From positions 62,001 to 126,000 of the forward strand of contig JAVYKX010000003.1 in the NCBI GenBank assembly GCA_038741495.1: 64,000 nt of DNA, written 5' to 3'. Below, in pieces: positions 49,478 to 59,630 of this stretch. Source of the stretch: Thermofilum sp. (GTDB lineage Archaea; Thermoproteota; Thermoprotei; Thermofilales; Thermofilaceae). Made by a program: the position numbers and the translations under genes. Each line of letters opens with the position of its first letter. The first letter of the stretch is position 1. The notes beneath the pieces were generated by a model. That model was not told the DNA's origin, did no database searches, and worked only from the letters and a program-made list of their open reading frames with translations.

Positions 49478-50077
49478 TTAAAGCTGTTTTTCAGCTTCCT
49501 TTAAAGCGCTCGAAAGCTCGCCGTAGACTTCTTTCGCGAAGACTTGGATCAGCCTCTCGTAGAGCTTCTCGTCAACGCCGATCGCTCTCTTCCGCACGAC
49601 TTCTCTCACGATGCTGTACGAGTAGAGCATGATGCTCAGGTTCCAGTAAAGGGCTTTAACTACTGCAACAGCTTCAGCTGTATTCGAGGAGAGGCCGGCG
49701 AGCTCTCTAGCGAAAGCTCCCATCGTCTCTACCATAAGCTGTTCCTTCACACCGCTTTTCACGTGAGCGAGGCCGATCTTCGCAACTAAGATCGCGTGCC
49801 TATCGCCGTAGTCACCGCCGAAAACTGCAGCGAGCCAGTACTTAAACAGCTCTGCAGCTCTCTCCAAGGTTAAGCCGGACCTCTGAACGCACTCCCGGCC
49901 CTCAGGATCAGCTAGCAGCGAGCTCGCAGCAGCGCTAACGATAGCGTCTGCAGAGGCCGCGACGCGGCCAGCCATCGCCCGGAGCGCTTGCACATCGTCT
50001 GGAGTTATGTTGAGGAAGCTTCTGCACCGCTTACCCATCTCCACTATACGCGCAGCAAACTCGCTGTTCTCGCTCAC
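49478..50077 (-). CDS. Protoglobin
   Basis: A 199-residue single-domain globin of the protoglobin/globin-sensor family. Pre-helix FLNITPDDVQALRAM, middle LFKYWLAAVFGGDYGDRHA and the proximal histidine His105 in AKIGLAHVKSGV match the family, and a C-terminal helical bundle completes it. No signalling domain is fused. Protoglobins bind O2, CO and NO. GTG at 50077 is preferred to the upstream ATG (50116) because a TATA CGTTATAGG (minus strand, ~50105-50113) sits about 30 bases before it. Confidence 0.88.
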   Translation of the reverse strand: MSENSEFAARIVEMGKRCRSFLNITPDDVQALRAMAGRVAASADAIVSAAASSLLADPEGRECVQRSGLTLERAAELFKYWLAAVFGGDYGDRHAILVAKIGLAHVKSGVKEQLMVETMGAFARELAGLSSNTAEAVAVVKALYWNLSIMLYSYSIVREVVRKRAIGVDEKLYERLIQVFAKEVYGELSSALKEAEKQL

Positions 50078-50116
50078 GGAGCAGGTATTCAGCGCTCTAC
50101 CTATAACGTTAATCAA

Positions 50117-50452: not shown

Positions 50453-51544
50453 GTGGCTCGGGTCGAGGTGAAGAATCTTCTAAAGCGGTTTGGAAAAGTG
50501 GTTGCTGTAGACAGGGTTTCGTTCGAGGTGAAGGACGGCGAGTTCATGGTCTTGCTGGGACCCAGCGGCTGCGGTAAGACCACTACGCTCCGCTTGATCG
50601 CCGGCCTGGAGACGCCTGACGACGGTGAGATCTACATCGGCGACCGTCTGGTGAACGACTTGCCCCCCAAGGACAGGGACATCGCGATGGTCTTCCAGAA
50701 CTACGCTCTCTACCCCCACATGAAGGTTTACGACAACATCGCGTTCCCGCTGAAGATCCGGAAGCTCCCAAAGGAGGAGATCGACAAGAGGGTTAGGGAG
50801 GTCGCGAAACTCCTGAGAATCGAGGAGCTCCTCGACAGGTACCCGAGGCAGCTGAGCGGTGGGCAGCAGCAGAGAGTAGCGCTTGGAAGAGCTCTCGTGA
50901 GGAAGCCCCAAGTCTTCCTGATGGATGAGCCGCTCAGCAACCTCGACGCGAAGCTGAGAGTCTACATGAGGGCTGAGCTGAAGAGGCTGCAGAGAGAGCT
51001 CGGCATCACCACGATCTACGTCACCCACGACCAGGCGGAAGCCATGACGATGGCGGACCGCGTCGCGGTGATGAACGAGGGTAAGGTGATGCAGCTCGCC
51101 TCCCCCCACGAGCTTTACTACAAGCCCGCCAACACCTTCGTAGCAGGCTTCATCGGAGCCCCAGCGATGAACTTCATTGACGCGAGCGTGGATGTCAGGG
51201 ATGGTGAAGCTTTCCTGGATACAGGAGTCTTCAGGATAAAGCTGCCTAGAAGCATGTCCGAGGTTCTGCTCAAAGCCGGCCCGCCGAGCGAGGTAATCTT
51301 CGGCATCAGACCTGAGCACATTACCGTCTCGAAGGAGCCGATCCCCGGGGGCTTCAAGGTAGAGGTGTTCGTCACAGAGCCGCTCGGCTCGGAGACAATA
51401 ATCGACTTCCGGCACATGGACCAGCTCGTCAAGGCGAAGTACCCCGGCCCCTTCGAGGCAATGCCAGGCGATACGATCTACGTAGCGTTCCAGCTCGAAA
51501 TGGCGCACATCTTCGACAAGAAGACCGGGAAAGTTATCGCTTAA
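50453..51544 (+). CDS. Carbohydrate ABC transporter ATPase (MalK/MsmX type), second copy
   Basis: A 363-residue ATPase with Walker A GPSGCGKTT, signature LSGGQQQRVALGRAL, Walker B VFLMDEPLSNLD and switch His YVTHDQAEA, plus the C-terminal TOBE regulatory domain (FGIRPEHITVS). It is a close paralogue of the ATPase at 15412. Unlike that one it is the first gene of its cluster, with the binding protein and two permeases following after a new promoter at 51664. The tail ends KKTGKVIA. Confidence 0.94.
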   Translation: MARVEVKNLLKRFGKVVAVDRVSFEVKDGEFMVLLGPSGCGKTTTLRLIAGLETPDDGEIYIGDRLVNDLPPKDRDIAMVFQNYALYPHMKVYDNIAFPLKIRKLPKEEIDKRVREVAKLLRIEELLDRYPRQLSGGQQQRVALGRALVRKPQVFLMDEPLSNLDAKLRVYMRAELKRLQRELGITTIYVTHDQAEAMTMADRVAVMNEGKVMQLASPHELYYKPANTFVAGFIGAPAMNFIDASVDVRDGEAFLDTGVFRIKLPRSMSEVLLKAGPPSEVIFGIRPEHITVSKEPIPGGFKVEVFVTEPLGSETIIDFRHMDQLVKAKYPGPFEAMPGDTIYVAFQLEMAHIFDKKTGKVIA

Positions 51545-51663
51545 CCGCAATCCAATTCTCAAAGTTTTTCTTCAGAAGCGAAGCAGGTCCAGCTTTTAGC
51601 AGAGTCCATCACCTTCTGTCCTGGAAACGTATTTAAATGACCTTTATAAGGTTTTCCAAATTG

Positions 51664-51703
51664 GTTAATATATAGTGTTATGTAGTTCATCTACGGACAT
51701 AAC
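51664..51703 (+). promoter_or_regulatory. TATA promoter and operator-like inverted repeat before the sugar-binding protein
   Basis: TATA TTAATATATAG at 51665-51675 is about 34 bases before the ATG at 51704. Downstream of it GTTATGT (51677-51683) is mirrored by ACATAAC (51697-51703), with 13 bases between, and an inner GTAG/CTAC pair strengthens the symmetry. An inverted repeat covering the transcription start is a classic archaeal repressor site (for instance TrmB-type regulators). Confidence 0.65.
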
Positions 51704-53020
51704 ATGTCCACCACGAGGAGAGATTTCCTCAAGCTGGCTGCAGTAGGGGCAGGAGCGCTTGTCTTAGGGCTTGCTGGAGGTTACCAGTGGGGCGCTTCTA
51801 CAGCTGCGCCTCCTGCTAAACCGCCCGTAACGTACTCCCTATCTGTGCTTGGGCGGGACGCAGAGCACCAGGATATCAACACTGCGGTTATCGACTTCTT
51901 CACTCGCGAGAACCCGAACTTCAAGGTGGAGTACTCCCCGCTAGCATACAGCCCCCTCTACGACAAGATCGTGCTAGCGCTAAAGGAAGGTAGCAGCGCT
52001 TACGACTTAGTGTACATGGACGACCCGTGGCTTCCCCAGTTCGGCGAGATGGGTTGGCTGACAGACCTCGAGGCTCTAGCGAGAGACGCGGGGGTCAAGC
52101 TGGACTTGGGAGACTTCCCGGATGTTCTCGTCGAGGTGGGCAGGCACCCCTACAAGACTGGGAAGCTGATCGCGATGCCTCAGCTGGGTAACGTGCAGAT
52201 CTTCGCGTACCGCAAGGACGTGTTTGACAAGCTAGGTCTTTCCGAGCCCGCAACGTGGACGGACGTGCTTAACGCCTGCAAGAAGATCAAGGACTCGGGG
52301 CTCGTCGAGCACCCGATCGCGTTTAGAGGCGCGAAAGGCAACCCCGTGGCGACCGCGTTCCAGCCGATTCTCTACGCTTTCGGCGGGAAAATCGTTTCCG
52401 ACGACTTGAAGAAGAGCGCGCTCGACTCTAAAGCAGTCGAGGCTATCGAGTTCTTCTTGGAGCTGAAGAAGTACGCCCCTCCGGGTGTGGAGAACTTCGG
52501 CACCCCCGATGTCCGGGACAGGCTGATCGGCGGCAGGATCGCTATGAGCACTGAGGTCTGGCCCGGCTGGATCAAGGACGCGGACAACCCGGCGGTCAGC
52601 AAAGTCCCCGGCCTCCTAGCCTACACCACCACTCCTGGTGAGCGGACTAAGCCTTCACCGCTGCTCGGCGTCTGGTACTGGGGCATCCCGGCAGGTTCCC
52701 AGAACAAGGAGGCCGCTCTCCAGTACATCCTCTACACGACTAGCGCGAGGATGCAGAAGCTCATGGCTATCGTGAAGGGGCTGCCGCCCGTCCGGTCGAG
52801 CGTGGGGGAGGATAAGGAGGTTGTCGGGCTGCGGAGGTGGATTGCCGTCCAGGTTAAAAGCCTCAAGGTTGCGGTGCCACGGCCTAGGACGCCCCTCTGG
52901 TCCAAGGTAGAGGATATCTTCGGCAGCTACCTTAACCAGGTTCTCGCAGGTACTATAAAGCCTGCGGACGCAGTGGCGAAGATGTCCGACGAGATCGATA
53001 AAGTCCTGGCGGGAGGATAG
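51704..53020 (+). CDS. Carbohydrate ABC transporter substrate-binding protein with TAT signal
   Basis: A 438-residue binding protein. The N-terminus STTRRDFLKLAAVGAGALVL is a twin-arginine signal, so the protein is exported folded. The binding domain (FFTRENPNFKVEYSPLAYSP; AFRGAKGNPVATAFQPILYA; GVWYWGIPAGSQNKEAALQY) is of the family 1 carbohydrate-binding type. It is unrelated in signal type to the binding protein at 12104, which uses a membrane anchor. It leads the permease genes at 53039 and 53884. Ligand unknown. Confidence 0.91.
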   Translation: MSTTRRDFLKLAAVGAGALVLGLAGGYQWGASTAAPPAKPPVTYSLSVLGRDAEHQDINTAVIDFFTRENPNFKVEYSPLAYSPLYDKIVLALKEGSSAYDLVYMDDPWLPQFGEMGWLTDLEALARDAGVKLDLGDFPDVLVEVGRHPYKTGKLIAMPQLGNVQIFAYRKDVFDKLGLSEPATWTDVLNACKKIKDSGLVEHPIAFRGAKGNPVATAFQPILYAFGGKIVSDDLKKSALDSKAVEAIEFFLELKKYAPPGVENFGTPDVRDRLIGGRIAMSTEVWPGWIKDADNPAVSKVPGLLAYTTTPGERTKPSPLLGVWYWGIPAGSQNKEAALQYILYTTSARMQKLMAIVKGLPPVRSSVGEDKEVVGLRRWIAVQVKSLKVAVPRPRTPLWSKVEDIFGSYLNQVLAGTIKPADAVAKMSDEIDKVLAGG

Positions 53021-53038
53021 GGAAGGGCGGTAGCGGGT

Positions 53039-53887
53039 ATGAAAAAAGTTTCTTTTTTACTCCTCTTGCCAGCGCTCACGATGCTTCTTTTTGTAACAGT
53101 TTACCCAATCCTGAGCACTTTTTACTACTCGCTTCATCGCTACAACCTGCTAACAGGCGAGTTTAAGTTCACGGGCCTCCAAGAGTACATAGAGCTCCTG
53201 AACGACGAGGTCTTCAGGATCAGCATCTTTAACACTCTGGTGTTCTCTTTGACGGCAACGCTCACTCAAACGTTTCTCGGACTCGCGATAGCAGTTCTCG
53301 TGAACCAGGAGATCGCCGGGAAGCGGTGGATCATTCCTCTCATCGTCTTGCCGAACATGTTCTCCGTCGTCGTGGTCAGCTCCATGTGGAAGCTAATGCT
53401 CGACTACGATACTGGCCTCGTCAACTACATCCTAAGAGCGCTAGGGCTACCGCCCCAAGCTTGGCTGACCAGCCTGAGCCTCGCTCTCCCGAGCATTGTT
53501 CTCATCGACACGTGGCAGTGGACCCCCATCTGCTTCCTCATCTTCCTCGCCGGGCTGCAGTCCATACCCAAGGAGCTCTACGAGGCTGCGGTCGTGGACG
53601 GTGCCTCTCCTCTGAGGACTTTCCGGAGCATCACGCTCCCGCTTCTCAAGCCTTACATCGCTCTAGTCCTACTGCTGAGGAGCATTGACACGTTCCGGCT
53701 CTTCGACAAAGTCTACCTCCTTACGGGTGGCGGGCCGGCTCACGCCACGGAGACAATCTCTCTCTACATCTTCAAGGCGGGGCTCGTATTCTGGGAGATA
53801 GGGAAGGCCTCGGCAGCCTCTTTCACAATGCTGCTCATAATACTCGCCGTTAGTGCCTTGTACGTGAAGAGGGTGATTTTCCAGTGA
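53039..53887 (+). CDS. Carbohydrate ABC transporter permease (MalF/UgpA-like)
   Basis: A 282-residue permease with six helices, starting with MKKVSFLLLLPALTMLLF. The EAA loop EAAVVDGASPLRTFRSITLP near residue 180 is intact. It overlaps the next permease by four bases (GTGA). It works with the TAT-exported binding protein and the ATPase at 50453. Confidence 0.93.
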   Translation: MKKVSFLLLLPALTMLLFVTVYPILSTFYYSLHRYNLLTGEFKFTGLQEYIELLNDEVFRISIFNTLVFSLTATLTQTFLGLAIAVLVNQEIAGKRWIIPLIVLPNMFSVVVVSSMWKLMLDYDTGLVNYILRALGLPPQAWLTSLSLALPSIVLIDTWQWTPICFLIFLAGLQSIPKELYEAAVVDGASPLRTFRSITLPLLKPYIALVLLLRSIDTFRLFDKVYLLTGGGPAHATETISLYIFKAGLVFWEIGKASAASFTMLLIILAVSALYVKRVIFQ

Positions 53888-54687
53888 GGACTTGGGAGAG
53901 AATCCTCCTCTACGCAGCCATCGGGATAGTGCTAGCCTGGACTCTGATCCCCATCTACTGGACTGTCAACGTCTCCCTCAAGACAGGCTTAGAAGTCTAC
54001 GAAGTCTTCTCGGCAAGCTTCAAGCTCGATAACTACATCAAGCTGCTCAACGAAGGCTTCCTAAGATACCTCTGGAACACGATATACCTTGCCTCCCTCA
54101 CCACGGCTCTTTCCCTTCTCCTCGCGGTCCCAGCCTCCTACAGCCTCTCGAAGCTCCCGATGAGCGAGCAGCTCCGGATGGGCTTCCTCGCGTGGACGCT
54201 CTTCTCGAGAACTATCCCTCCCATAGTCCTGATAATCCCCATCTACACCATGTACGCCCAGCTGAAGCTTCTAGACAGCTTAAACTCGGTAGCTATCGCC
54301 TACCAGGTCTACACGCTCCCCTTCTCGATCTGGATGATGCTCGGCTTCTTCAGGGCCACCCCCCGGGAAGTGGAGGAAGCTGCGAAAGTCGACGGCGCCG
54401 GCCCGCTCACCATCATGGCCAGGATCCTACTACCCATAGTCGCCCCCGGGATAGTGGCCACCGCTATCTTCTGCTTGCTCATGTCGTGGAACGAGTTCCT
54501 CTACGCAGTGATCCTCCTGCACAGCCCGAGGAACTACGTGGTCCCCCTCGTGATCGCGGGCTACATTTCGGAGTGGGGAGTCAAGTGGGGTGAGATGGCC
54601 GCCGCAGGCATAGTTTCATCGCTCCCCATGCTGCTCTTCACAGGCTACGTCCAGCGCCACCTCATCCTCGGCTTCATGCGCCGCTAG
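53884..54687 (+). CDS. Carbohydrate ABC transporter permease (MalG/UgpE-like)
   Basis: A 267-residue permease with six helices; EAA loop EAAKVDGAGPLTIMARILLP near residue 160. Its GTG overlaps the stop of the previous permease. A short T/C-rich stretch (GCTTTTCTCC, ~54697-54706) after the stop may end the transcript. Completes the second importer. Confidence 0.93.
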   Translation: MRTWERILLYAAIGIVLAWTLIPIYWTVNVSLKTGLEVYEVFSASFKLDNYIKLLNEGFLRYLWNTIYLASLTTALSLLLAVPASYSLSKLPMSEQLRMGFLAWTLFSRTIPPIVLIIPIYTMYAQLKLLDSLNSVAIAYQVYTLPFSIWMMLGFFRATPREVEEAAKVDGAGPLTIMARILLPIVAPGIVATAIFCLLMSWNEFLYAVILLHSPRNYVVPLVIAGYISEWGVKWGEMAAAGIVSSLPMLLFTGYVQRHLILGFMRR

Positions 54688-54816: not shown

Positions 54817-56178
54817 CTACCGCGTAATACCCAGCTCCGAGAGCTCGCGGGATACGCGGTGCACTACCTCGACCCACTCCCCGCGGGGGGCGGCTGTCTT
54901 CTTGTCGTAAAGCTCCCAGAACGGCTTGCCGGGGCTCGGGCTCTGCAGCTTGCTCTCGTAGCGCTTGTAGAGCTCCCATGCCACGTCGCACGCCGACTCC
55001 ACGCTTAGACCCGCGGAGGCTACAGCCTTGCCCACCTCAGCCATGAACTGGGCTTCTAGACCCCCGCCGTTCGGCGCGGTCCCGTTGGCGGGGACGGGGC
55101 CGAGCAGGTGGAGGCCGGCTGCCACTACCGCTATAGTGTTCGCAGCGATCTCGTAGAGGTACTCGGCTGTGCCGAGGCCGCAAGCAGGCCACACGTCCGC
55201 GACTAGCGGCAGCTTAAGGTGCTCGTTCGCTAAGCCGACCGCGACCTGCACCCACATGCACTCGGCTGAAGATGTTGCCTTCTTGACGATGTGCGTCGGG
55301 TGCACCAGCACGTAGCCAGCCCTGTAGGCGGCCAGGGACAGGATGATCTCGGCGACTGAGACGATCGCGGAGCCGGCAGGCCCCCTGGCGAAGCCTCCGA
55401 CAACCGGGTCTACGAGCGCCGCGCCGATCACCCCCTTCTCGAGCCCAACCTGCGCTTTCGCCAGCTGGCTGTAGTCTGTTTTCAGCTCGTTGAGCACGGG
55501 CAGAAGCTGCGCGTCACCCTCCACCAGGAGCCCCAGCGACATCGCTGCCAGGCTGCCCACGCTCGAGACGCTGCTCTCCCCAGCTAGCAGGTGCATGCCG
55601 GGCCTACCCGCGTCGGCTAGAGCCCTCCTCAGGTAGGCGAGCTCCCGGATGCCCGCGGCCGCCTCGCTGGCCGCGCCAGCCCTCACCGCGACTCCGGAAA
55701 CCTCCTGCAGGCTGCCGTGGTCCAGGGCGTCTACGAGCGGCTGCTGCGCGTACGACAGGGCGGTGGCGTAGAAGTACTCCTCCGGAACGGGGGTCCCGGC
55801 GAGCCCGCCGAAGACGAAAGGCCTCCTCCGGTCCCCGGGCAGGCGCGCCCACAGCGTCCTCGAGTCGAGGCCCCTCCCCAAGGTGAGCTCGCGCCGAGCG
55901 CTCTCCAGAGCTTCCCGAAGCTCCTCCTCGGCGAACTTTGCTACCCTGCTCTCCTCGAGGACGTACAGCCCCGTCTCCAGCGCGAGCGCGAACCCCGCCT
56001 CGTAGACCGCCTTCCCGACGCCCCTGTCGAGGGGGAAGGGGTGTGCCGCGTCGTAAGCTACGCCGTACTCTTTCTCGAGCTCGGCAACGCGCTTGGAGAC
56101 GTGCTCGAGGTCGAACTTCCTCTGCTCCACGTACACTCCTCTGCGGGCACGCTCCTCGACGAGCAGCGGGGTAAGCAT
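54817..56178 (-). CDS. MtmB-family methyltransferase lacking pyrrolysine
   Basis: A 453-residue homologue of monomethylamine:corrinoid methyltransferase MtmB. Conserved blocks: VYEAGFALALETGLYVLEES, ELTLGRGLDSRT, FVFGGLAGTPVPEEYFYATA, DAGRPGM and the C-terminal PGKPFWELYDKKTAAP. In MtmB the segment after GRPGM holds pyrrolysine encoded by TAG. Here the aligned position is Leu198 encoded by CTA (55585-55587), and no in-frame TAG occurs. The preceding gene encodes the corrinoid protein. The enzyme therefore probably transfers a methyl group from a different donor, by analogy with non-pyrrolysine MttB proteins. Substrate unknown. Confidence 0.82.
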   Translation of the reverse strand: MLTPLLVEERARRGVYVEQRKFDLEHVSKRVAELEKEYGVAYDAAHPFPLDRGVGKAVYEAGFALALETGLYVLEESRVAKFAEEELREALESARRELTLGRGLDSRTLWARLPGDRRRPFVFGGLAGTPVPEEYFYATALSYAQQPLVDALDHGSLQEVSGVAVRAGAASEAAAGIRELAYLRRALADAGRPGMHLLAGESSVSSVGSLAAMSLGLLVEGDAQLLPVLNELKTDYSQLAKAQVGLEKGVIGAALVDPVVGGFARGPAGSAIVSVAEIILSLAAYRAGYVLVHPTHIVKKATSSAECMWVQVAVGLANEHLKLPLVADVWPACGLGTAEYLYEIAANTIAVVAAGLHLLGPVPANGTAPNGGGLEAQFMAEVGKAVASAGLSVESACDVAWELYKRYESKLQSPSPGKPFWELYDKKTAAPRGEWVEVVHRVSRELSELGITR

Positions 56179-56216
56179 ACCGGCCCAACCACCGCTACGC
56201 GCTCATATCTTGTGCG

Positions 56217-56867
56217 CTAGGTGCGAGACACAAGCTTCCGGCACTTCTCCACAGCTTCCACGGCGTCCTTCGCGTACGCGTCAGCCCCCACTTCTCTAGC
56301 GAACTCCTCGGTGACCGGCGCCCCGCCTACTATCACTCTCACTCGGTCCCTCAGGCCAGCCGACTTGAGAGCGTCGATCACGTTCCTCATCTCGATCATT
56401 GTCGTCGTGAGCAGAGCGCTCATTCCGACGATGTCTGGCTCGTACCTCTCCACCGCTTCCACGAACTTCTCAGGAGGTACGTCCACGCCGAGGTCGATCA
56501 CCTCGAAACCATCCACCCGCAGCATAGTCGCCACGAGGTTCTTCCCCAGGTCGTGGATATCCCCTTTCACAGTGCCGATGACCACGCGCCCCCTCCTCGC
56601 CTGCGCGGCCCCCCTCTCGAGGAGAGGCTGCAGGAGGCTCACAGCTCTAGTGAAGATGTCCGCCGAGATCATGAGCTCCGGGAGGAAGTACTCCCCCCTC
56701 TCGAACTTCTCGCCAACCTCCCGCATGCCCGGCGTCAAGCCCCCCTCGATGACCTCCAGAGCGCTGCACCCGGCTTCTAAAGCCTCCCTCACGAGCTCCA
56801 GGACAGCGCCCTCCTCTAGCGCCGAGAGAGCGGCTCTAACCTTAGCCAGAGCCTCCGGGCAGCCCAC
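56217..56867 (-). CDS. Corrinoid (B12-binding) methyltransfer protein
   Basis: A 216-residue corrinoid protein of the MtmC/MtbC/MttC group. The N-terminal helical cap domain (residues ~10-85, with GLTPGMREVGEKFERGEYFL) is followed by a B12-binding Rossmann domain with Asp103-x-His105-x-x-Gly108 (GDIHDLGKN), VIDLGVDVPPEKFV, and MSALLTTTM. His105 would coordinate cobalt. GTG at 56867 lies about 27 bases after TATA GAATATCGG. It heads a two-gene operon with the MtmB-like methyltransferase. No reactivase (RamA-like) or second methyltransferase is in the window. Confidence 0.92.
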   Translation of the reverse strand: MGCPEALAKVRAALSALEEGAVLELVREALEAGCSALEVIEGGLTPGMREVGEKFERGEYFLPELMISADIFTRAVSLLQPLLERGAAQARRGRVVIGTVKGDIHDLGKNLVATMLRVDGFEVIDLGVDVPPEKFVEAVERYEPDIVGMSALLTTTMIEMRNVIDALKSAGLRDRVRVIVGGAPVTEEFAREVGADAYAKDAVEAVEKCRKLVSRT

Positions 56868-56970: not shown

Positions 56971-58059
56971 CTAGTCTTCCGGCTCGTCAGCCACGTACCG
57001 CTTCACGAGAGCCAGGTAAGAAGCGAGGATGAACACCGCCATAGACGCAGCGAGGAAAGCGAGGATGACGCCGACCAGGGGGACGGGGATCTCCAGGTAC
57101 AGGTTGGCGAAAGCTCTCGCCGGGAGAGCCTCGTAGCCGGCGTAGACGAGGTTCGGGTACTTGACACCGCTGTTGAGAGTTTCGCCCGCCAGCGCGGTCA
57201 GGACCGCCAGCGCTGCGAGAGGCTTCACGCTGGGCGCCGAGCCCCGGTTCAACCTCCTCAGAGCCCTCAACGAGAGCGCAGCCAGAGCAGCTACAGCCGC
57301 CACCTTCGCGGCTAGCAGCGGGTTGAAGGTAACGACCTCGAAGAACAGCGGAGAGTACTGGGAGAGGCCTAGCCAGTAGGCTGGGCCGAGAGCGAGCTGC
57401 GCGAAGAGAGGGTAGGCTCCGAGCTTCAGCGCGAAGCTCAAGCCTCTCGCGTCCCTTCCCAGCTCGGCTACCCAAGCGGAGGCGAAGCCCCCCACCGAGA
57501 TCACCGCAGCGACCGTGTGGAGGTAGAGGAGCCAAAAGAGAGGGTTCCCGTAGGCTAGGAGGCCCGGGTGGCCGCCTCCCTGAAGGTAGTGGCCGATAGC
57601 TAGGGGGTAGTGCATTTCCGCGAACACTGCTCTGAAGCCGAAGGGGATGCCGAACCCGGAGAGCGCCATCACCCACATGATCAAGGCGTGCGCGCGCGGG
57701 CTGATCCTCCCCCACGTGTACCAGGAGGCAGCTATAGCGGGGATCCTCACCATGATCGAAGAGACCGCTACGGCAAGGGGGATGAAGAGAGTGTTCGTCG
57801 CGAGCGTGAGGAGGGGCGTGAAGAAGCCTGCCAGGAAGACGGTGATCACTGTGCCCCAGACACCGCTGTAGAGCTCAGTGACGAGGAGCAGCTTGAGGAA
57901 CCTGCGCGAAGCGAGCTCGAGCTCCCGGTCGCCCCTCTTGTAGGCGAGCCAGCGGGTCCACGCTGCCGCAAGCCCGGTGCCGAGCGTGATCGAGACGAAA
58001 GCTATGTGGATCAGGAGGGCGAGGCCGAGCCCCGCGAACCCGAGGAAGACCGTGTCCAC
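56971..58059 (-). CDS. Cytochrome bd-type oxidase subunit CydA' (CydA-like second subunit)
   Basis: A 362-residue polytopic protein related to CydA: LGLALLIHIAFVSITLG holds the histidine equivalent to the CydA heme ligand, and about eight helices follow. It lacks the Q-loop and the GRxPW signature of CydA. This pairs with the known archaeal CydAA' arrangement, where a CydA-like protein replaces CydB. GTG at 58059 is the likely start: GAGGTGAG overlaps the stop of cydA six bases upstream, whereas the longer open frame reads through the cydA gene. It is the second gene of the operon. Confidence 0.82.
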   Translation of the reverse strand: MDTVFLGFAGLGLALLIHIAFVSITLGTGLAAAWTRWLAYKRGDRELELASRRFLKLLLVTELYSGVWGTVITVFLAGFFTPLLTLATNTLFIPLAVAVSSIMVRIPAIAASWYTWGRISPRAHALIMWVMALSGFGIPFGFRAVFAEMHYPLAIGHYLQGGGHPGLLAYGNPLFWLLYLHTVAAVISVGGFASAWVAELGRDARGLSFALKLGAYPLFAQLALGPAYWLGLSQYSPLFFEVVTFNPLLAAKVAAVAALAALSLRALRRLNRGSAPSVKPLAALAVLTALAGETLNSGVKYPNLVYAGYEALPARAFANLYLEIPVPLVGVILAFLAASMAVFILASYLALVKRYVADEPED

Positions 58060-58064
58060 GGCTC

Positions 58065-59630
58065 TCACCTCTTCTCGAGAACCCCGACGCTCTTCGAGGC
58101 TACTAGGTACATGGCGCAAACCCCGGCTAAGCCCACCGCGGCTATGAATAGAGCTGCCCAAGCGATGAAGGCGGGGTTCTGCGCTAGAGGCACAGGCGTG
58201 GCCAGCTCCTCCGGCGTCAGCAGCCCGTAGACGGTCCAAGGCTTCCGGCCCACCTCCCTCACAGCCCAGCCGAGCGCGGACGGCGTCACCGTCCCCGCTA
58301 CAGCTAAAGCTGAGAGGATGAGGATGCGGCGCCTCTCACCGCCCAGGAGCGAGGTGACCTTCACCGCGAGGGGTGAGAGCAGGGGGATCCTGACGAACGA
58401 GAGGAGGAGCGCAGCCACAGCTAAGCCGCCGACCACCGCTGCCGCCACTTTCGCGTAGTAAGCGTAGTGGACTAGCTCGAGGAGGCGCTCCGCCCTCCTG
58501 AGGTCGGCTACGCACAAGTCTCTCAGCTTCACTTCTTCGAGCTTCTGCACGCTGGCCGAGTCCAGCGCCGCCAGGTAGGGGTACAGGTCGAGCTTTCTCG
58601 CCAGCTCGCCCAGCGTCAACCCTCCCAGCTTCTCGCAGGACTCGTAGAAAGCGTCAAAGCCCTGGATCGGCTTGGAGGGGTCTCCGTACGCGATGAGCGC
58701 CACTACAGGGTTGTGGTAGGTCTCCCTCGCGCCCTCCATCATGGCGAACTTCGTCGGGTTGAACTTCACCACCGCCTCGCCCATGAAGTGGGCGAACACC
58801 GGTGCCTGAAGGACGAAGAGCACCGCCAGCATCAGCACGAGGGGCTTCAAGACGCTCAAGTACTCCGGCGCCCCCGTCCTGTAGTACCTGTACGCCCAAG
58901 CCGCCACGACGAGAGACAGGGCGATCAAAACCCCTGCGAGAATGTTGTGAAGCGCGGAGATCGCAGCGTAAGGGTTGTAGAGGGCGGCTAGCGGGTCCTC
59001 GAGTACCACGCCCAGCTTCTCCGAGAGCCCCGGCCTCTCCAGGAGCACGGAGACCGGCACGCCCTCAGCCAGCGCGGAAACCTTCAAGGCGACGAGCTTA
59101 GCCTCGTCGACAGCGTCCGGCCCGAACTCCGGCATGAAGGGGTAGAGAGCCTGAGCGAGAGCACCCGTACCCCAGGGAGCCTGCATCCAGCTGTTCACGG
59201 CAGTGATCAGGAAAGCCGAGAAGAACGCGAAAACCGTGTAAAGCGCAATAACAGCGATGCTGACCAGGGCCTTAACCCTCCCGAGAGTCACGTAGAAGAG
59301 GACTAGCAGCGCGATCTCTAGAGTGAAAGCGATCAGCTCGAGCGCTAGCGGGGCGAGCGCCGCGGTAGCTATAGCCAGGTTCACGCCGGGCCAAACCTGC
59401 ACGAGCCCGAACTCCACCAGAGTGCCTGTGATCGCCCCTAAAGCGAAGTTCAGCACAAGCACTCGAGTCATCAGCTTAGCAGCCCTCATGTAGACCCCGC
59501 CCCCCTCCCGCCGGCTCATCCACAGCATGGCGGCAATCGCGAAAGGCAAGCCCAGCGTGAGAGAGACGAAGAACGCGTGGAAGTAGATCCCTAGAGCGCT
59601 CAGGTGGAGCAGAGGGGCAACGCTCGACAT
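58065..59630 (-). CDS. cydA: Cytochrome bd-type quinol oxidase subunit I
   Basis: A 521-residue CydA. His18 (IYFHAFFVSLTLG) matches the heme b595 ligand, SWMQAPWGTGAL is the conserved loop after helix 4, HNILAG holds another heme His, KFNPTKFAMMEGA begins the quinol region and EVGRKPWTVYGLL is the family signature. The Q-loop has an unusual insert (DPSKPIQGFDAFYESCEKLG). It would reduce O2 with quinol electrons, most likely for oxygen removal in an anaerobe. ATG at 59630 lies about 29 bases after TATA GTTTAAGTT (minus strand). Confidence 0.92.
   Translation of the reverse strand: MSSVAPLLHLSALGIYFHAFFVSLTLGLPFAIAAMLWMSRREGGGVYMRAAKLMTRVLVLNFALGAITGTLVEFGLVQVWPGVNLAIATAALAPLALELIAFTLEIALLVLFYVTLGRVKALVSIAVIALYTVFAFFSAFLITAVNSWMQAPWGTGALAQALYPFMPEFGPDAVDEAKLVALKVSALAEGVPVSVLLERPGLSEKLGVVLEDPLAALYNPYAAISALHNILAGVLIALSLVVAAWAYRYYRTGAPEYLSVLKPLVLMLAVLFVLQAPVFAHFMGEAVVKFNPTKFAMMEGARETYHNPVVALIAYGDPSKPIQGFDAFYESCEKLGGLTLGELARKLDLYPYLAALDSASVQKLEEVKLRDLCVADLRRAERLLELVHYAYYAKVAAAVVGGLAVAALLLSFVRIPLLSPLAVKVTSLLGGERRRILILSALAVAGTVTPSALGWAVREVGRKPWTVYGLLTPEELATPVPLAQNPAFIAWAALFIAAVGLAGVCAMYLVASKSVGVLEKR

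What the first reader, a model, noticed from the sequence alone, without database searches (positions are those of the whole stretch)
54817..56867. Non-pyrrolysine MtmB-like methyltransferase paired with a corrinoid protein in a sugar-using archaeon
The 453-residue protein follows monomethylamine methyltransferase MtmB along its length, including GRPGM and the C-terminal FxxxYDxKT block. The pyrrolysine position is Leu198 (CTA at 55585-55587), and there is no in-frame TAG. The partner carries the DxHxxG corrinoid site. Non-pyrrolysine members of the trimethylamine (MttB) family are known to use betaines; a matching non-pyrrolysine MtmB family is, to my knowledge, uncharacterised. No methanogenesis, reactivase or acceptor methyltransferase genes are in the window, so both methyl donor and acceptor are open.
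Basis: partly seen in the sequence, partly recalled or inferred. Interest (0 to 1): 0.85.

Follow-up and report, generated by a model that had tools for sequence, protein, structure and literature searches.

The report
Pyrrolysine-free MtmB-type methyltransferase, corrinoid partner
A heat-loving archaeon that is not a methanogen carries a vitamin-B12-dependent demethylating enzyme from the monomethylamine methyltransferase family but without its special 22nd amino acid, and the neighbours of its closest relatives suggest it strips methyl groups from methylated purine-like molecules, a substrate class I know of no report of for such enzymes.

Summary
Window 54817-56178 (-) encodes a full-length MtmB-family protein (PF05369, 5.6e-74; model TM-score 0.95 to MtmB). 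Leu198 (CTA) sits at the pyrrolysine site. A cognate corrinoid protein (TIGR02370 above cut-off) lies 38 bp upstream.

'Uncharacterised' is out of date: MtqB of Methanococcoides methylutens Q3c, a non-Pyl MtmB homolog, was shown in March 2026 to demethylate tetramethylammonium and choline.

New here: the protein belongs to a distinct clade (Thermofilaceae, Methanomethylicia, Desulfurococcales, Ca. Formimonas; support 100/100) whose barrel-mouth residues replace the Pyl-site ones (E229L, E259L, Q333D, Y335W, G297H). Clade neighbours are BMP/PnrA-type ABC importers, nucleobase permeases, adenine deaminase, a PucR regulator and an adenine phosphoribosyltransferase. Sister non-Pyl MtmBs sit beside xanthine permease and selenium-dependent xanthine dehydrogenase.

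Best mechanism: Co(I) attack on an N-methylated purine or nucleoside-like compound, reactivation by the genome's single RACo protein, and methyl transfer probably to homocysteine by a MesA-like core methionine synthase (MtrH and pterin-binding methyltransferases not detected).

Substrate and acceptor are inferences, and the window genus itself shows no purine neighbours. Choline-type amines are the main rival. New variant of a known kind.

The parts
54817..56178 (-). mtmB-like gene, 453 aa, non-pyrrolysine MtmB family (a-type clade)
   Evidence: PF05369 250 bits; PDB 1l2q 1.3e-53; model TM 0.95 to MtmB; tree
56217..56867 (-). mtmC-like gene, 216 aa, cognate corrinoid (B12-binding) protein, GTG start, 38 bp upstream of mtmB
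   Evidence: TIGR02370 229.3 bits against cut-off 215.3; B12-binding and B12-binding_2; pair kept in six of seven genomes of the genus
55585..55587 (-). codon 198 CTA (Leu), the position of pyrrolysine 202 in MtmB1
55594..55608 (-). GRPGM motif, residues 191-195, just before the strand that carries residue 198
   Evidence: sequence; strand E196-199 in the model
56544..56561 (-). DxHxxG corrinoid-binding motif (DIHDLG, residues 103-108 of the corrinoid protein)
   Evidence: sequence; B12-binding domain
55189..55197 (-). D328-V329-W330: replaces Q333-Y-Y335 of the Pyl enzyme; D328 in 29 of 31 and W330 in 30 of 31 a-type enzymes
   Evidence: strand E325-328 in the model
55291..55302 (-). H293-P-x-H296 motif: H293 replaces G297 of MtmB1 and is invariant in the a-type clade
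55408..55416 (-). L255-V256-D257: replaces E259-Q260-M261 of MtmB1

Best explanation
The two genes form a substrate-specific corrinoid methyltransferase unit. The MtmB-like TIM barrel binds a small N-methylated compound at the mouth of the barrel, and the Co(I) form of the corrinoid protein takes its methyl group as CH3-Co(III). There is no pyrrolysine to hold a methylammonium adduct; the site has Leu198, a conserved D328-W330, H293/H296, H154 and D257, which suits a cationic or heteroaromatic N-methyl donor bound directly. The most likely donor class is a methylated purine or nucleoside-like compound. Oxidised Co(II) corrinoid is reactivated by the genome's single RACo ASKHA/2Fe-2S activator. 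The methyl group most likely passes to homocysteine through the MesA-like core methionine synthase, because the genus shows no MtrH and no PF00809 methyltransferase. This would be an anabolic or salvage system (free base plus methionine) in an archaeon whose relative T. pendens lacks purine synthesis, and not a methanogenic one. Shown here: family, fold, pairing, missing Pyl residue, clade, signature residues, presence of RACo and a core-MetE-like protein. Inferred: substrate class, acceptor, direction of transfer. The confidence below is for the whole statement; that it is a corrinoid methyltransferase unit with a non-monomethylamine donor I hold at about 0.9, the purine/nucleoside donor at about 0.4, the homocysteine acceptor at about 0.45.
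For: Family and fold. Clade 100/100: Thermofilaceae, Formimonas, Desulfurococcales MAGs and Methanomethylicia copy a, apart from the Pyl enzymes. Shared signature: E229L, E259L, Q260V, M261D, G297H, Q333D, Y335W by MtmB1 numbering, at the C-terminal ends of barrel strands in the model. Purine/nucleoside context of the same clade: Formimonas (40% identical) in an island with two NCS1 permeases, PbuX-type xanthine permease, adenine deaminase above cut-off, 8-oxoguanine-deaminase-like enzyme, PucR regulator and MtrH/MtgA; Methanomethylicia and Desulfurococcales copies beside a BMP/PnrA-type ABC importer; Thermofilaceae G015: ECF transporter overlapping MtmB, divergent from an adenine-phosphoribosyltransferase-like gene (PRK08558 180.2 against 184). 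Sister non-Pyl MtmBs: Se-dependent xanthine dehydrogenase 1389 bits, YgeY, SsnA-like, BMP, PbuX. Control: 4 of 6 independent non-Pyl loci in Formimonas have a nucleobase/nucleoside transporter or adenine deaminase, against 1 of 40 evenly spaced windows, p = 4e-4; the Pyl-MtmB locus has none. Activator. Acceptor: MetE-like 331 aa with HxC...E...C spacing close to MesA; MtrH not found, PF00809 not found. T. pendens lacks purine synthesis (PMC3261824).
Against: In the window's own genus no BMP importer was found, and no purine gene or ECF unit lies near the pair, so the substrate is carried over from orthologs at 40-59% identity. The marker genes of the control were picked after seeing the loci, so its p value is optimistic. 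BMP, ECF and NCS1 importers also carry other compounds: the BMP and NCS1 genes score best, below cut-off, against putative B6 and hydroxymethylpyrimidine transporters. Five sister-genus loci have a split galactarate/altronate-dehydratase-like pair beside MtmB. The core MetE match is weak (28 bits, cut-off 21). Other corrinoid pairs of the genome (MttB-like, UroD-like) could feed the same acceptor. MtqB, the only characterised non-Pyl MtmB, uses choline and tetramethylammonium.
Confidence: 0.42

Rival explanations
1. A choline/tetramethylammonium/betaine-type quaternary amine methyltransferase working like MtqB, with methyl transfer into anabolism.
For: MtqB is the only characterised non-Pyl MtmB homolog and uses QMA and choline. 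Leu198 and conserved acidic/aromatic residues at the barrel mouth would also suit a quaternary ammonium.
Against: The paper places MtqB in a branch near Pyl-MtmB, whereas the a-type clade is separate from Pyl-MtmB here; MtqB's own sequence could not be fetched, so this is indirect. No betaine/choline transporter or choline gene was seen beside any a-type locus examined.
Confidence: 0.25
2. An N-methylpyridinium demethylase (N-methylnicotinamide, trigonelline or a B6-like compound) feeding NAD or vitamin salvage.
For: The BMP importer scores best, below cut-off, against a putative B6 importer. ECF transporters and an isochorismatase-family (nicotinamidase-superfamily) gene flank MtmB in G015. 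An NAD-synthetase-like gene lies three genes away in five sister-genus loci (my reading of the sequence).
Against: The NAD-synthetase-like gene stays with the UxaA pair where MtmB is elsewhere (G015), so it is not tied to MtmB. The isochorismatase gene scores best against biuret hydrolase/RutB and poorly against nicotinamidase. Formimonas loci carry purine genes.
Confidence: 0.12
3. An O-demethylase for methylated sugar acids or sugars in a sugar-using archaeon.
For: Convergent CUT1 sugar-type ABC transporter at 50453-54687 in the window. MtmB precedes a split galactarate/altronate-dehydratase-like pair in five sister genomes.
Against: The transporter is convergent and beside the pair only in this genome among those examined. 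The dehydratase pair occurs without MtmB in G011, G020 and G015 and was not detected in the window's genus. No MtmB homolog is known to me to act on ethers.
Confidence: 0.07
4. A true monomethylamine methyltransferase, by ordinary pyrrolysine coding or by a Leu-containing enzyme.
For: Overall fold and length equal to MtmB. MtqB keeps a little monomethylamine activity.
Against: Codon 198 is CTA and the frame is open. E229, E259 and Q333, conserved in the Pyl enzymes examined, are all replaced. TAG is an ordinary stop in neighbouring genes.
Confidence: 0.03

Closest known systems
MtmB, monomethylamine:corrinoid methyltransferase (Methanosarcina barkeri; PF05369; PDB 1l2q, 1nth, 1tv2)
   Same: Full-length homology, 29% identity, TM-score 0.95, corrinoid partner of the same family
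   Different: Leu198 in place of Pyl202; E229, E259, Q260, M261, G297, Q333 and Y335 all changed; separate clade
MtqB/MtqC, tetramethylammonium and choline methyltransferase of Methanococcoides methylutens Q3c (PMC13044021)
   Same: Non-Pyl MtmB homolog paired with a corrinoid protein
Non-Pyl MtmB of Ca. Formimonas warabiya DCMF (L160) and Methanomethylicia copy a
   Same: Same clade, 40-43% identity, same signature residues, corrinoid gene directly upstream
   Different: They lie beside nucleobase permeases/adenine deaminase/PucR/MtrH (Formimonas) or a BMP importer and a second MtmB (Methanomethylicia); the Thermofilum pair has none of these. No function reported in the papers read
Non-Pyl MttB family (MtgB, MtpB, MtcB, MtyB)
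   Same: Same logic: Pyl residue lost, new donor, corrinoid partner; the genome also has an MttB-like/corrinoid pair
   Different: Different family: MttB structures give TM 0.52-0.59 only
MesA core methionine synthase (PMC7857596), for the candidate acceptor
   Same: The candidate acceptor enzyme in this genome has the HxC...E...C zinc pattern and no folate domain
   Different: Weak match (62 bits against a PRK00957 cut-off of 258); the paper found MesA in methanogens and split MetE in Thermoprotei

Membership tests
MtmB family (PF05369), broad sense | Full-length profile match above the curated cut-off | tested here: met
   250 bits against 25, residues 9-451
MtmB family (PF05369), broad sense | MtmB-type TIM-barrel fold | tested here: met
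   pLDDT 94, TM 0.95 to 1nth
MtmB, monomethylamine methyltransferase (narrow sense) | In-frame UAG encoding pyrrolysine 202 | tested here: not met
   CTA = Leu198, no internal stop
MtmB, monomethylamine methyltransferase (narrow sense) | Pyl-site residues E229, E259, Q333 (conserved in the Pyl enzymes of the alignment) | tested here: not met
   L225, L255, D328
MtmB, monomethylamine methyltransferase (narrow sense) | Activity with monomethylamine | not testable with these tools
   Needs an assay
Methyltransferase cognate corrinoid protein (TIGR02370) | Score above the curated cut-off; two B12-binding domains with DxHxxG | tested here: met
   229.3 against 215.3; motif at 103-108
MtqB (QMA/choline methyltransferase) | Same clade as MtqB and its conserved Met/Cys near the ligand | not tested
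   MtqB sequence not obtainable; the paper gives the signature only by position in a logo
MtqB (QMA/choline methyltransferase) | MtbA-type methylcorrinoid:CoM methyltransferase in the genome | tested here: inconclusive
   One URO-D family protein, paired with its own corrinoid protein, 31-33 bits against MtaA/CmuA-type models with cut-offs of 235-244
Methylated-purine/nucleoside methyltransferase clade (proposed) | Member of the a-type clade with its barrel-mouth signature | tested here: met
Methylated-purine/nucleoside methyltransferase clade (proposed) | Linked nucleobase/nucleoside transport or salvage genes at the locus itself | tested here: not met
   None near the pair in the window's genus; present in G015 of the same family and in other lineages
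Core methionine synthase (MesA-like) as acceptor | Zinc residues His-x-Cys, Glu, Cys and no folate-binding domain | tested here: met
   H209, C211, E234, C297 in 331 aa; spacing from C211 to E234 is 23, against 22 in MesA. Assigned by eye from one sequence
Core methionine synthase (MesA-like) as acceptor | Takes methyl from this corrinoid protein | not testable with these tools
   Needs an assay

The most novel reading that the evidence does not exclude
A large part of the pyrrolysine-free MtmB family consists of corrinoid-dependent demethylases of methylated purines, nucleobases or nucleosides, spread over Thermoproteota (methanogenic Methanomethylicia included) and anaerobic bacteria. In Methanomethylicia this would make imported methylated nucleosides a methanogenic methyl source; in Thermofilum it would recover both a purine and the methyl group of methionine.
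Probability: 0.4. Interest if true: 0.85.

Novelty: new variant of a known kind. Interest (0 to 1): 0.62.

Why it matters
Only one non-Pyl MtmB has a known substrate. If the clade acts on methylated purines or nucleosides, corrinoid methyltransferases would reach a new donor class that every cell releases when it turns over RNA. It would give a testable methyl source for Methanomethylicia methanogens, an anaerobic route for methylxanthines in bacteria such as Formimonas, and a possible role in salvage for a purine-auxotrophic hyperthermophile. It would also show what replaces pyrrolysine in this fold.

Tried and rejected
Ordinary Pyl system: rejected, CTA codon and changed site. Unrelated TIM barrel: rejected. 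Link to the UxaA-like dehydratase as the defining context: weakened, because the pair stands without MtmB in G011, G020 and G015 and was not detected in the window's genus. BMP importer as a genus-wide partner: not found in the genus. CUT1 transporter as partner: convergent and in this genome only. MtrH and pterin-binding methyltransferases as acceptors: not found in the genus. Plasmid collection and viral contigs: no relatives. A first genome-contig query with a wide alignment failed for lack of conserved stretches. MtqB's sequence could not be reached, so its place in the tree is open. Whether Ga0180325_111810, the most DCM-induced protein of strain DCMF (PMC9768040), is one of the two MtmBs in the purine island could not be settled; gene order suggests it lies near there, and DCM induction would not be explained by the purine reading.

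Full report
OBSERVATION. The window holds two co-directional genes on the minus strand: a 216-residue corrinoid protein (56217-56867, GTG start) and, 38 bp downstream, a 453-residue MtmB-family protein (54817-56178). The larger protein matches Pfam MtmB from end to end (250 bits, cut-off 25). By sequence its only PDB matches are M. barkeri MtmB1, and its AlphaFold2 model (mean pLDDT 94) superposes on MtmB with TM-score 0.95; the next fold is MttB at 0.52-0.59. The smaller protein passes the cut-off of TIGR02370, methyltransferase cognate corrinoid protein, and has DxHxxG at residues 103-108. Leu198 (CTA, 55585-55587) aligns with Pyl202. The gene ends in TAG, but so do five of the nine genes checked here (the pair included), and orthologs end at the same place with any of the three stops.

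WHO HAS IT. In its own genome the family occurs once. It is in all seven sampled genomes of the genus and in most of the family (14 of 61 relatives, all in one family); named relatives are Thermofilum and Thermofilaceae MAGs. In six of seven genomes of the genus the corrinoid gene directly precedes mtmB. A maximum-likelihood tree of 75 sequences puts the Thermofilaceae proteins (13 rows, 100/100) in a clade (100/100, 35 rows) with one MtmB of Ca. Formimonas warabiya, Desulfurococcales and other Thermoproteota MAGs, and copy a of a tandem MtmB pair in Methanomethylicia. Copy b is the next clade and the Pyl enzymes stand apart. Some deep branches of the tree are weak or long.

THE ACTIVE SITE. 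Against MtmB1 the whole clade replaces E229, E259, Q260, M261, G297, Q333 and Y335 by L, L, V, D, H, D and W, with a few exceptions (Formimonas has F at 330 and N at 257), and keeps the GRPGM loop, E205 and H300. In the model these positions fall at the C-terminal ends of the barrel strands (strands 151-153, 196-199, 251-256, 289-292, 325-328). I infer a pocket that binds its donor directly and without a Pyl adduct. No coordinates were available, so no distances were measured.

SUBSTRATE EVIDENCE. The window itself gives little. The neighbours are a convergent CUT1-type ABC transporter (50453-54687) and two cytochrome-bd-subunit-I-like genes, and neither is a constant neighbour. The clade gives more. 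In Formimonas the ortholog (L160, 40% identity) sits in an island with two NCS1 permeases, a PbuX-type xanthine permease (507 bits, cut-off 414), adenine deaminase (625, cut-off 472), an 8-oxoguanine-deaminase-like enzyme (531.6, cut-off 532), a PucR-domain regulator, a second corrinoid/MtmB pair, an MtrH/MtgA-like protein and a methyl-THF:corrinoid methyltransferase. In Methanomethylicia and Desulfurococcales the corrinoid-MtmBa-MtmBb unit faces or adjoins a BMP/PnrA-type ABC importer, sometimes with RACo. In the Thermofilaceae genome G015 an ECF transporter overlaps the start of mtmB and is divergent from an adenine-phosphoribosyltransferase-like gene (180.2 bits, cut-off 184) and an isochorismatase-family gene. 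An ECF unit with a related S component (24% identity, E 5e-17) adjoins corrinoid-MtmB in another Thermoproteota family.

WIDER FAMILY. Other non-Pyl MtmBs of Formimonas sit beside selenium-dependent xanthine dehydrogenase (1389 bits, cut-off 830) with PbuX (L187), beside a BMP importer, a molybdenum hydroxylase, SsnA-like and YgeY genes (L185), and beside PbuX (L183). A separate archaeal clade (L190, L192) again has RACo, corrinoid, MtmB, MtaB and a BMP importer. As a control, four of six independent non-Pyl loci of Formimonas carry a nucleobase/nucleoside transporter or adenine deaminase, against one of 40 evenly spaced 20-kb windows (Fisher p = 4e-4; with deaminases and dehydrogenases counted, 4 of 6 against 5 of 40, p = 0.009). 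The Pyl-MtmB locus has none. The markers were chosen after the loci were seen, so these values are optimistic.

LIMITS OF THE CARRY-OVER. In the window's genus no BMP importer was found at all, and no purine gene or ECF unit lies near the pair. The purine reading for this particular protein therefore rests on clade membership, the shared site, one member of the same family (G015), and the fact that T. pendens lacks purine synthesis and depends on salvage (PMC3261824). I put it at about 0.4. The main rival is a choline/tetramethylammonium donor as for MtqB (PMC13044021).

ACTIVATION AND ACCEPTOR. The genome has one RACo-family activator (608 aa with Fer2, linker, middle and C-terminal domains). 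It has no detectable MtrH or PF00809 protein. Its single URO-D protein is paired with its own corrinoid protein. A 331-residue MetE-like protein without a folate domain carries H209-x-C211, E234 and C297, close to the zinc pattern of MesA (PMC7857596). I infer that homocysteine is the most likely acceptor. The genome also has a non-Pyl MttB-like/corrinoid pair, which could share RACo and the acceptor; an MttB homolog in Thermofilum was noted in 2010 (PMC2933860).

COMPARISON AND VERDICT. It is a member of the MtmB family in the broad sense and fails two defining features of monomethylamine methyltransferase (Pyl residue and Pyl-site residues). It works like non-Pyl MttB enzymes and MtqB: the Pyl-dependent donor is given up for another. 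Non-Pyl MtmBs as such are known; this clade, its site signature and its purine/nucleoside link I have not found in the papers available, with the caution that the searches covered open-access papers only.

Noticed in passing
window 56971-59630 (-): Two cytochrome bd subunit I-like genes (PF01654) directly upstream of the corrinoid gene in an apparently anaerobic hyperthermophile; one of them is divergent.
   Followed up: no
window 49478-50116 (-): Protoglobin-domain protein (PF11563).
   Followed up: no
L072:6167-8241 (own genome C1): Non-Pyl MttB-like methyltransferase with its own corrinoid protein; conserved in the genus.
   Followed up: partly
L073:7709-9617 (own genome C4): URO-D family protein of 429 aa overlapping its own corrinoid gene; in G004 the same pair lies beside RACo.
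   Followed up: partly
L182, L183, L185, L187 (Ca. Formimonas warabiya): Several corrinoid/non-Pyl MtmB units inside purine-transport and xanthine-dehydrogenase clusters, which suggests anaerobic methylxanthine or methylpurine use.
   Followed up: partly
L190:5634-13760, L192: Thermoproteota operon corrinoid - MtmB - MtaB (methanol methyltransferase, PF12176) with RACo and a BMP importer alongside.
   Followed up: no
L018:6490-8361 and relatives: Split galactarate/altronate-dehydratase-like pair (197 aa + 424 aa) after MtmB in five sister genomes; the small subunit has no Pfam match.
   Followed up: partly
L028:1620-2420 and L195:2819-3418: An ECF S component without Pfam or NCBIfam match (G015), related to the one beside MtmB in another family; its substrate may be the MtmB donor.
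   Followed up: partly
L028:4924-6218 (G015): The MtmB frame is interrupted by a run of N and read as two pieces; probably an assembly gap.
   Followed up: no
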